A stretch of DNA of 64,000 nt from assembly GCF_002900095.1 (NCBI RefSeq), contig NZ_LLKN01000002.1, forward strand, positions 2,170,001 through 2,234,000. Direction: 5' to 3'. The DNA comes from Salegentibacter mishustinae (GTDB taxonomy: Bacteria > Bacteroidota > Bacteroidia > Flavobacteriales > Flavobacteriaceae). Shown piece after piece: positions 11,300 to 57,291 of this stretch. Under the pieces are notes generated by a model that was not told the DNA's origin, made no database searches, and saw only the letters and a list, made by a program, of their open reading frames with translations. A program made the position numbers and the translations under genes. Every line of letters begins with the position of its first letter. The stretch's first letter is position 1.

Positions 11300-11357
11300 A
11301 ATAACCTCTGGCGAGGTCCGTGTATGTTGTTTTGGATTTTACATTAAATAAGCAATT
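11300..11357 (+). promoter_or_regulatory. rplS 5' leader with small hairpin
   Basis: The predicted L19 transcript carries a ~65-nt leader. Bases 11304-11317 form ACCTC-tggc-GAGGT, a 5-bp stem with a tetraloop, followed by a U/G-rich stretch to the ATG. Ribosomal-protein leaders are known autoregulatory sites; whether this one is such a site is inference. Confidence 0.35.
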
Positions 11358-11708
11358 ATGGAATCGTTAATTAAGTACGTACAAGACGAATTCGTTGAAA
11401 GAAAAGATTTACCTCAATTTTCTGCAGGTGATACTATTACTGTGTATTACGAAATTAAAGAGGGTCAAAAAACCCGTACCCAGTTTTTTAAAGGGGTAGT
11501 AATTCAGAAAAGAGGAAGCGGTGCTTCACAAACATTTACCATTAGAAAAATGAGTGGTACTGTAGGTGTAGAAAGAATTTTTCCTTTAAACCTTCCTGCA
11601 ATTCAAAAAATTGAATTGAACAAACGAGGAAAAGTAAGAAGAGCTCGTATTTATTACTTTAGAGAACTTACCGGGAAAAAAGCCCGTATTAAGGAAGCTA
11701 AAAGATAA
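11358..11708 (+). CDS. rplS: 50S ribosomal protein L19
   Basis: A 116-residue L19, a large-subunit protein at the 30S-50S interface. The family motifs GDTITVYYEIKEG, FKGVVIQKRGSG, FTIRKMSGTVGVERIFP and the basic C-terminus RRARIYYFRELTGKKARIKE are all present. It has its own promoter and leader upstream and a strong terminator 24 bp downstream. Confidence 0.98.
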   Translation: MESLIKYVQDEFVERKDLPQFSAGDTITVYYEIKEGQKTRTQFFKGVVIQKRGSGASQTFTIRKMSGTVGVERIFPLNLPAIQKIELNKRGKVRRARIYYFRELTGKKARIKEAKR

Positions 11709-11731: not shown

Positions 11732-11760
11732 AAAGCCCCGAAAATTCGGGGCTTTTTTTA
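11732..11760 (+). terminator. Rho-independent terminator after rplS
   Basis: AAAGCCCCGAA/TTCGGGGCTTT stem followed by a T run ending at 11759. Confidence 0.92.
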
Positions 11761-11818
11761 TGCCTAATTTATAAGAAAATAAAGCTATAAATCTCTGCCT
11801 AACAAAACGTTAAATTTC

Positions 11819-11849
11819 TTGCGAAAACTTATTTTTGGTTGTATATTTA
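11819..11849 (+). promoter_or_regulatory. candidate promoter of an intergenic RNA
   Basis: TTG at 11819-11821, a 20-nt spacer, and TATATTTA at 11842-11849, one base off the TAnnTTTG consensus. It lies after the rplS terminator with no CDS for 465 bp downstream, so it would drive a non-coding or leader RNA starting near 11856. Confidence 0.5.
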
Positions 11850-11855
11850 GTATAG

Positions 11856-12158
11856 GAATTAGTTGAATAAAGAATGACAAAAGGATTTCTTAAACAGCAG
11901 ATTCTGAGTAGAGCTTAAAACGCTTTACATACGGTTTTTATCTTCTATATAACGCTCATTTTTGCCAGGTCAAAAGAAGTTTGAAGGATAAAAACCTTTA
12001 GATTCAAAAATCTAACTTTACTAAGTTTTTATTTTTGAGTCATTGAAATAATACACACCGGGATTTTTCCCTTAAAGAATTTCGAAAATTCAGTGAGCAC
12101 GTATTATTTCAGTTGAAGCCATTTCATTTTAGCTAATAAGATGAAATGGCTTTTTTTT
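11856..12158 (+). ncRNA. candidate structured non-coding RNA, unassigned family
   Basis: The 606-bp gap between rplS and icd is mostly occupied by a self-contained unit: promoter, ordered inverted repeats and terminator. Hairpin 1 pairs 11933-11945 with 11983-11996. Hairpin 2 is TAGATT-caaa-AATCTA at 11999-12014. A three-way junction follows: outer stem 12042-12054 with 12101-12113, inner arms GGGA-tttt-TCCC at 12060-12071 and GAATTT-cga-AAATTC at 12077-12091. The terminator is at 12118-12158. A 14-codon ORF at 11874-11918 could be a leader peptide but is probably chance. I see none of the diagnostic sequences of tmRNA, RNase P or SRP RNA. It may be a known flavobacterial family such as 6S-Flavo or Flavo-1, which I cannot test. 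Confidence 0.5.
12118..12158 (+). terminator. Rho-independent terminator of the candidate RNA
   Basis: GCCATTTCAT/ATGAAATGGC, a perfect 10-bp stem with a 13-nt loop, then eight T. It is too far from rplS, which has its own terminator, to serve that gene. Confidence 0.9.
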
Positions 12159-12242
12159 GTGCCTTTTAAATAATAATTAACAGGCTTTCATGTTGCTTCA
12201 GCTATGATAAAAGCTTGAAAAATATTATATTGCGCAGAGCTC

Positions 12243-12268
12243 GAACGCCCAATAGCTATTGGGCGTTC
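12243..12268. promoter_or_regulatory. perfect 26-bp palindrome upstream of icd
   Basis: GAACGCCCAATAG followed directly by its exact reverse complement, with no spacer. It ends 47 bp before the icd ATG, immediately after a TATATTGCG stretch that may be a -7 box. No T run follows, so it is not a terminator. It could be a dimeric repressor operator or an RNA cruciform/hairpin in the icd leader. Confidence 0.55.
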
Positions 12269-12290: not shown

Positions 12291-14534
<2,244 letters not shown>

Positions 14535-24215: not shown

Positions 24216-24333
24216 CCCCAAGTTTACTCGGGATATTCTTGCCGAAATTAAAGGACTCGAACCTCTTGTTTTACTTACCCACCCGGGATTTCTTTTCAGT
24301 ATTTTTGGGAACTCAGTTGCGCCGTAAGCGGCT

Positions 24334-24366
24334 GCAAATATACAATGCTTTTTCTTTATCCGCCAA
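24334..24366 (-). promoter_or_regulatory. rRNA promoter P1 (16S-proximal)
   Basis: On the minus strand TTG at 24366-24364, a 21-nt spacer and TATATTTGC at 24342-24334, followed by AGCCGC. It fits the Bacteroidota consensus. Confidence 0.75.
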
Positions 24367-24471
24367 ATCTTTTTTAGAAAAATTTTTGACTTTTTTTTAA
24401 AGCTTTCCATTCTCAAAAGAACTTCAAAACAACTCCCGTTTCTATTAAAAACCTTCGCTGTTTTTGCGGCT

Positions 24472-24502
24472 GCAAATATACACCCTCTTTTGATTCTGGC
24501 AA
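24472..24502 (-). promoter_or_regulatory. rRNA promoter P2
   Basis: On the minus strand TTG at 24502-24500, a 19-nt spacer and TATATTTGC at 24480-24472, followed by AGCCGC, the same initiation context as P1. Confidence 0.75.
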
Positions 24503-57191: not shown

Positions 57192-57232
57192 CAAGAAATT
57201 ACATCCTAAAATAAATTCAGGATAAAGCATTT

Positions 57233-57271
57233 AAAAAGCCCTATCAGATTATAAAATTTGAGAGGGCTTTT
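57233..57271. terminator. bidirectional terminator between ompH and guaB
   Basis: AAAAGCCCTaTCA/TGAgAGGGCTTTT stem with A and T runs on either side, between two convergent genes. Confidence 0.88.
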
Positions 57272-57291
57272 AAATTTATAAGGCAATAAGT

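What the first reader, a model, noticed from the sequence alone, without database searches (positions are those of the whole stretch)
11819..12158. Self-contained promoter-structured RNA-terminator unit of ~300 nt with no protein
The sequence shows TTG-N20-TATATTTA, then a nearly perfect 13-bp stem (11933-11945 with 11983-11996), a 6-bp hairpin, a three-way junction closed by a 13-bp stem (12042-12054 with 12101-12113), and a 10-bp terminator with eight T. Nested pairings in order, between two genes that have their own control signals, are hard to explain as chance. Known flavobacterial RNAs (6S-Flavo, Flavo-1) are the first alternatives.
Basis: partly seen in the sequence, partly recalled or inferred. 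Interest (0 to 1): 0.75.

Follow-up and report, generated by a model that had tools for sequence, protein, structure and literature searches.

The report
Unrecognised RNA gene in marine Flavobacteriaceae
Between two ordinary genes lies what looks like a separate gene for a folded RNA that makes no protein; the same RNA sits at the same place in many genera of this bacterial family, matches no catalogued RNA family, and its job is unknown.

Summary
Window 11855-12158 (+) folds far better than chance (z -6.73, 0 of 100 shuffles) and ends at an intrinsic terminator. It is conserved in 15 of 15 genomes of the genus (Salegentibacter). Over 46 sequences, junction plus terminator show two-sided changes in 26 of 39 pairs; 88.9% of cells pair, at most 43.3% when partners are slid. 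A covariance model matches 242 of 397 family genomes (an upper figure: terminator-only false matches occur near 36 bits); 70 of 70 inspected loci (39 bits or more) lie by rplS and/or icd. In an rplS-anchored sample 23 of 30 loci have its terminator. No Rfam 15 family matches; the genome's 6S-Flavo is elsewhere. It persists where other genes stand in icd's place or rplS is about 2 kb away, so it is unlikely to be an icd leader or rplS tail. Most likely it is an independent structured non-coding RNA gene (about 290-540 nt across genera) acting in trans. No transcript, target or partner is known.

The parts
11800..11814 (+). TAACAAAACGTTAAA, possible remnant of the upstream element (GTTAATAA-N5-GTTnATAA-N3-GTTGAT) found before this RNA in other genera
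   Evidence: Element at <=3 mismatches in 19 of 23 RNA-bearing and 1 of 7 RNA-lacking rplS-anchored loci; NOT met in the window (best 8 mismatches). That the window stretch is a remnant is a guess from reading
11819..11821 (+). -33 box TTG
   Evidence: by eye at this place in 6 of 15 genus sequences; consensus type recalled
11842..11849 (+). -7 box TATATTTA
   Evidence: exact in 12 of 15 genus sequences by eye
11855..12158 (+). the RNA gene (5' end inferred, rough; 3' end in the T run)
   Evidence: z -6.73; 15 of 15 genus genomes; family-wide
11855..11905 (+). 5' stem-loop: 11855-11860/11900-11905, 11862-11865/11895-11898, 11870-11874/11887-11891; loop region UGACAAAAGGAU
   Evidence: fold of the window sequence; TGACA..AGGAT invariant in 15 of 15
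11908..11928 (+). hairpin P0 (11908-11914/11922-11928); reads ATAAAGTAACGTTCTTTAT in other genera
   Evidence: that exact form in 22 of the 102 loci listed
11933..11996 (+). P1 (11933-11944/11985-11996) with stacked hairpin 11970-11974/11980-11984 and a strongly conserved unpaired stretch of about 25 nt
   Evidence: 12 of 12 P1 pairs kept in 15 of 15 sequences, 3 with changes on both sides
12001..12041 (+). hairpin P2; sequence differs strongly between clades of the genus
   Evidence: each of 15 sequences folds alone to a hairpin here
12042..12113 (+). three-way junction: P3 12042-12054/12101-12113, P3b 12056-12058/12093-12095, arms P4 12060-12062/12069-12071 and P5 12077-12082/12086-12091
   Evidence: all 4 P3b, 5 P4, 4 P5 and 7 of 11 P3 pairs show changes on both sides over 46 sequences; the P4 columns counted are those of the other genera, the window's own P4 being shifted
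12115..12158 (+). intrinsic terminator with conserved stem (GAAGCCATNTCA / TGANATGGC) and eight T
11358..11708 (+). rplS (ribosomal protein L19), upstream neighbour
   Evidence: PF01245
11732..11759 (+). rplS's own terminator
   Evidence: read; compared
12226..12233 (+). icd's own -7-like box TATATTGC
12315..14534 (+). icd (monomeric isocitrate dehydrogenase), usual downstream neighbour
   Evidence: PF03971

Best explanation
[quoted passage not shown] Transcription starts near 11855 and ends at the terminator at 12158. In most other sampled genera the promoter region is preceded by a three-repeat upstream element found only there, so the RNA is probably made under control of a transcription factor. 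It most likely acts in trans. Its 5' stem-loop shows an invariant loop (UGACAAAAGGAU, in the genus) that could pair with mRNAs, and its 3' three-way junction plus terminator form a family-wide module that probably holds a protein or stabilises the RNA. Shown by sequence comparison: the unit, its fold, its separability from both neighbours, its distribution. Inferred: transcription, regulation, action in trans. Undecided: base pairing or RNA-protein particle. The confidence is for the whole statement; that it is a real independent RNA gene I would put at about 0.93.
For: Fold; in 23 rplS-anchored loci, terminator excluded, median z -3.17, 18 of 23 below -2. Compensatory change: 7 of 58 pairs in the genus (1 of 500 shuffles reaches that); 26 of 39 pairs in 46 sequences, covariation score 0.370 against 0.157 shuffled and at most 0.097 slid. 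Distribution: 15 of 15 in the genus, 242 of 397 family genomes by model R2, 23 of 30 rplS-anchored loci. Position: 40 of 40 pattern hits and 70 of 70 inspected model hits lie by rplS and/or icd. Independence: the next gene is icd, an ABC-transporter ATPase, a pentapeptide-repeat protein or an unnamed protein; rplS is about 2 kb upstream in 7 of 40 loci. Upstream element: 19 of 23 RNA-bearing loci, only at this locus at <=2 mismatches in 16 genomes. No ORF of 40 aa or more.
Against: No transcript was seen. icd does follow in most loci inspected. P1 and the 5' loop are confined to near relatives. Model R2 contains the terminator: false matches to lone terminators occur at 33-36 bits (also window 57209-57272 at 28.7 bits), so 242 of 397 is an upper figure. 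Among the 30 rplS-anchored genomes R2 had matched 24: the 23 with the terminator and G017, whose match is a 46-nt terminator on another contig. Seven of 30 loci and 5 of 5 loci of genus g127 lack the RNA, so it is dispensable in the family. In the genus the number of further pair types is not above shuffles (385 of 500), and 14 of 16 terminator pairs never vary. L184's hit covers little beyond the terminator.
Confidence: 0.6

Rival explanations
1. It is the leader of icd: a riboswitch-like three-way junction next to a terminator that controls read-through into the isocitrate dehydrogenase gene, like the icd and icd-II motifs of Proteobacteria.
For: icd is the usual next gene; a three-way junction directly precedes a terminator; the icd and icd-II motifs are also described as three-stem junctions upstream of icd (PMC8632094, passages). 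The 5' arm of P3 could pair with the terminator's 5' arm in 81.3% of cells, more than its slid versions (at most 52.2%).
Against: Other genes follow the RNA in several genera, and icd is 0.8-1.1 kb away in others. A promoter-like box lies between terminator and icd in 21 of 23 loci. The competing helix has no two-sided change, equals its shuffles, and one of its five pairs fails in 23 of 46 sequences. Within the aligned junction no stretch pairs with the terminator arm in more than 61% of cells, against 99.5% for the terminator itself; the 5' part (P0-P2) was not scanned for this.
Confidence: 0.1
2. It is a structural RNA that works as the core of an RNA-protein particle (6S- or OLE-like in kind), not by base pairing with mRNAs.
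For: Size, several helices, and a junction conserved across genera where the 5' parts are not; the terminator stem varies less than that of rplS in the same loci (partly circular); one DNA match in its own genome.
Against: P1, P2 and total length vary greatly between genera; some genera do without it.
Confidence: 0.25
3. It is a 3' fragment of the rplS transcript (3'UTR-derived RNA).
For: rplS lies upstream on the same strand in most loci.
Against: rplS has its own terminator before the RNA (window 11732-11759); in 7 of 40 loci rplS is about 2 kb upstream; a locus-specific promoter element intervenes in most genera sampled.
Confidence: 0.04
4. It is an mRNA for a tiny peptide (ATG at 11874, MTKGFLKQQILSRA).
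For: The ATG and next codons are well conserved inside the genus.
Against: The frame stops after 5 codons in some relatives and runs on with unrelated residues in others (my reading); the stretch is absent in other genera; the conserved letters lie in a hairpin loop.
Confidence: 0.03
5. It is a known RNA (6S-Flavo, Flavo-1 or another Rfam family) that diverged.
For: Same broad class (intergenic flavobacterial RNA).
Against: 6S-Flavo at 107.9 bits lies on contig C3 of the same genome. No match at gathering score in the unit or at the RNA in 19 related loci. Permissive searches of the unit gave 4 matches with E 0.56 or worse and of one relative (L037) E 4.3 or worse; the E 0.001-0.04 matches lie at the rplS terminator and are below their gathering scores.
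Confidence: 0.02

Closest known systems
6S-Flavo RNA (RF01685)
   Same: Flavobacterial, intergenic, structured RNA
   Different: No match of its model here; the genome has its own 6S-Flavo at C3:100082-100189
icd and icd-II motifs (Proteobacteria, riboswitch candidates)
   Same: Three-stem junction upstream of icd (PMC8632094, passages)
   Different: Other phylum; in icd-II the ribosome-binding site of icd is part of the first stem; here a terminator and a promoter-like box lie between, and the RNA occurs without icd next to it
Rfp18 and other Rfp RNAs of Flavobacterium psychrophilum
   Same: Conserved flavobacterial small RNAs with strong predicted structure; Rfp18 deletion lowered two protease mRNAs (PMC9723704, abstract and passages)
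   Different: The position of Rfp18 is not in the text seen and supplements were out of reach; five loci of the large genus g127 (probably Flavobacterium, inferred) lack the RNA at rplS-icd. Identity not settled, but unlikely
FopS / GibS sRNAs of Bacteroides
   Same: sRNAs of the same phylum (PMC11697453, passages)
   Different: FopS are about 65-70 nt and 14 paralogs; this one is about 290-540 nt, with a junction, one copy in its own genome
L19-Flavobacteria leader (RF03130)
   Same: Same locus
   Different: Lies upstream of rplS at 11302-11329, a separate element

Membership tests
6S-Flavo (RF01685) | Scores over the family's gathering score | tested here: not met
   No hit in the unit; the true 6S-Flavo is elsewhere
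Flavo-1 (RF01705) and other Rfam 15 families | Match at gathering score | tested here: not met
icd / icd-II riboswitch candidates | Lies in the leader of icd | tested here: not met
   Here mostly before icd, but other genes follow in several genera
icd / icd-II riboswitch candidates | Expression platform: alternative pairing with terminator or ribosome-binding site | tested here: inconclusive
   A 5-bp competing helix is possible in 81.3% of cells but without covariation and equal to shuffles
Independent bacterial non-coding RNA gene | Conserved secondary structure with compensatory changes | tested here: met
Independent bacterial non-coding RNA gene | Own terminator, and kept when either neighbour changes | tested here: met
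Independent bacterial non-coding RNA gene | Own promoter | tested here: inconclusive
   Conserved -7 box in 12 of 15, TTG in 6 of 15 (by eye); scan not above chance; upstream element in other genera
Independent bacterial non-coding RNA gene | Transcript of the predicted size | not testable with these tools
   No expression data held
Trans-acting base-pairing sRNA | Conserved pairing with target mRNAs | not tested
   The genome was not available as a file; no target search was made

The most novel reading that the evidence does not exclude
A new class of large structured bacterial RNA, old in the Flavobacteriaceae, that forms an RNA-protein particle with a lineage-specific partner. Its own dedicated upstream control element would tie it to a global growth or nutrient signal. 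Its SD-like 5' loop in this genus (AAAGGA, complementary to UCCUUU of the 16S tail) hints that it might touch the ribosome, in a phylum whose ribosomes are reported to ignore Shine-Dalgarno sequences.
Probability: 0.2. Interest if true: 0.85.

Novelty: new member of a known kind. Interest (0 to 1): 0.62.

Why it matters
This family is prominent in the sea and in polysaccharide breakdown (recalled), and it is called understudied in the abstract of PMC9723704. An RNA gene with a junction and terminator matched in 159 of 237 sampled genera (upper figure; 70 loci checked), absent from Rfam 15, would be a core RNA that has been overlooked. It is simple to test: one Northern blot and one deletion.

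Tried and rejected
An exact pattern for the P1 loop matched 2 of 249 family genomes, both of the genus: P1 is not the widely conserved part. A covariance model of the genus alone reached 27 of 397 genomes; in 3 of these the hit was not near rplS or icd (L044, L049, L050). Five of 15 loci were on the wrong strand in the first alignment, which was discarded and redone. The order-level search matched 8 of 148 genomes; the one hit outside the family (L172) and one in g127 (L171) are not near rplS or icd and are taken as false. R2 with filters off over 12 loci without the RNA gave at best 23.7 bits, on the strand opposite to rplS (L187). R2 with laxer filters on 11 genomes that had looked empty or doubtful matched 5 at E<=0.01, all at 29-36 bits; the three of genus g4 are 46-nt terminator-only matches, and the G017 ones are not on the contig that carries rplS; the places of the others were not inspected. 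In one search my terminator pattern failed on 25 loci, many of which other calls show to carry the RNA, so no count of presence is taken from it. Rows left out of A4: 15 of 61 listed sequences, namely L051, L062, L085, L087 (5' arm not alignable) and 11 that I judged near-duplicates by eye; L079 was cut by its contig end. An antiterminator was looked for and not supported. Sharing of the upstream element with other genes was looked for in 16 genomes: 11 further matches at 3 mismatches against 11 for the reversed control, so chance.

Literature: the searches listed no paper that I could recognise as reporting an RNA between rplS and icd; I read only passages of four papers. Most subscription papers and all supplements were out of reach.

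Full report
WHAT WAS CHECKED. The unit lies between rplS (11358-11708) and the monomeric icd (12315-14534), all on the + strand. The described features are there, with corrections. The whole unit folds with z -6.73 (0 of 100 shuffles), and without the terminator with z -4.98 (0 of 200).

CONSERVATION IN THE GENUS. A DNA search found the unit in 15 of 15 genomes, own genome included. The core alignment (A3, 15 rows, 58 pairs) has 97.7% of cells paired against 40-57% when partners are slid; 7 pairs show changes on both sides, reached by 1 of 500 shuffles. The P2 hairpin is kept with very different sequence: each of the 15 folds alone to a hairpin there. Against: the number of further pair types is not above shuffles (385 of 500 reach it), and 14 of 16 terminator pairs never vary.

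ACROSS THE FAMILY. A model of the genus (R1) matched 27 of 397 family genomes; in 24 the hit lies by rplS and/or icd, in three not. A terminator-plus-P3 pattern in genome contigs gave 40 stretches, 40 of 40 by rplS and/or icd on the same strand: Salegentibacter, Christiangramia (also as Gramella), Gillisia, Salinimicrobium, Winogradskyella, Aureitalea, an uncultured Aquimarina and many metagenome genomes. Alignment A4 (46 of 61 sequences, junction plus terminator) gives 88.9% paired cells, 26 of 39 pairs with changes on both sides, and 233 such cells against 87.3 in shuffles and at most 52 when slid. Column 15 with 82, for instance, occurs as AU, CG, UA, GC, UG and GU. The structure was drawn from this alignment, which favours it on paired cells.

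HOW WIDE. A model from A4 (R2) matched 242 of 397 family genomes, 159 of 237 genera, at E<=0.01. R2 contains the terminator, so I checked position. All 70 loci inspected (30 returned, 40 fetched by choice from the listed hits, 39 bits or more) lie by rplS and/or icd. In 69 the hit is on the strand of the neighbours; in L158 the listed best hit is the opposite strand of the terminator, with a + hit at nearly the same place. The other 172 matching genomes were not inspected through this route. Below about 37 bits false matches occur: L171, L172, genus g4. So 242 is an upper figure for R2 matches; on the other hand R2 may miss diverged copies. In the order search (8 of 148 matched) the single non-family match is false.

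A SAMPLE NOT CHOSEN BY THE RNA. rplS was searched in 32 family genomes (32 of 32 found, 30 loci returned). The RNA terminator is present downstream in 23 of 30 (22 with the first pattern; L184 with a relaxed one). R2 had matched all 23 of these genomes and 1 of the other 7 (G017), whose match proved to be a terminator on another contig. The terminator's last seven stem letters agree in 19-22 of 22 loci per position, against 13-19 of 22 for the rplS terminator of the same loci. The pattern that picks the terminator fixes some of these letters, so this is partly circular. In the 23 loci the RNA body without terminator folds with median z -3.17, 18 of 23 below -2; lengths come to 291-540 nt (the start was set by a simple motif rule that picked a wrong box in some loci, so lengths are rough).

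INDEPENDENCE. The RNA is followed by icd in most loci, but by a 247-aa protein in L040, L045, L131 and L133 (an ABC-transporter ATPase by Pfam in L131), by a pentapeptide-repeat protein in L087 and L176 (Pfam) and by other proteins in L042, L062, L126, L132, L137. rplS is about 2 kb upstream in 7 of 40 loci, with icd still 146-248 nt from the terminator anchor. A promoter-like box lies between RNA terminator and icd in 21 of 23 loci (no chance control, and the sequence is AT-rich). Before the RNA, in most sampled genera other than Salegentibacter, lies an element GTTAATAA-N5-GTTnATAA-N3-GTTGAT: 3 or fewer mismatches in 19 of 23 RNA-bearing and 1 of 7 RNA-lacking loci; letter shuffles never went below 4. 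In 16 genomes chosen because they carry it, it occurs at 2 or fewer mismatches only at this locus (14 of 16; the other two have 3 there), and the 11 further matches at 3 equal the reversed control. Its 11-13 bp repeat spacing recalls sites of OmpR/PhoB-type regulators (recalled, not tested).

HOW IT MAY WORK. In the genus the conserved unpaired parts are the 5' loop UGACAAAAGGAU and the P1 loop; both are limited to near relatives. What the family keeps is the junction plus terminator. This fits a trans-acting RNA whose 3' module is held for protein binding or stability and whose 5' part adapts to targets. It fits less well a leader of icd: a short competing helix with the terminator is possible but shows no covariation. 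AAAGGA in the 5' loop is complementary to the 16S tail, which is only a lead; that ribosomes of this phylum do not use such pairing is from the starts of abstracts in the listing (PMC9976891, PMC6847099).

KNOWN OR NEW. No Rfam 15 family matches in the unit, at the RNA in 19 related loci (a 20th source, L044, was a false locus) or in L037 under permissive settings. The searches listed nothing that reports it. Nearest are the Rfp RNAs of Flavobacterium psychrophilum (PMC9723704, abstract and passages) and the icd/icd-II motifs (PMC8632094, passages); the 104-motif list was seen in passages (PMC2864571). I file it as a new family of the known kind 'bacterial intergenic structured RNA', with unknown function.

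Noticed in passing
L176-L199, about 60-130 nt after the end of the rplS match (for instance L176): A three-repeat upstream element GTTAATAA-N5-GTTnATAA-N3-GTTGAT precedes the RNA in most sampled genera and, at <=2 mismatches, occurs only there in the 16 genomes searched.
   Followed up: partly
window 12243-12268: A perfect 11-bp hairpin (GAACGCCCAATAGCTATTGGGCGTTC) between the promoter-like box and the start of icd.
   Followed up: no
L187 (genome G039), downstream of rplS: The upstream element is present at 3 mismatches but no recognisable RNA follows, and a second GTTAATAAC-type stretch lies several hundred nt on. Possibly a diverged or decayed copy.
   Followed up: partly
L200, L201: After rplS a different isocitrate dehydrogenase (by recall the dimeric type; no family search was run) follows directly, and the RNA is missing.
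   Followed up: no
window 24320-24500, - strand: Two near-identical promoter-like stretches (TATATTTGCAGCCGC) in tandem upstream of the 16S rRNA gene.
   Followed up: no
window 11302-11329: L19-Flavobacteria leader (RF03130) upstream of rplS; also in 18 of the 20 sources scanned.
   Followed up: no
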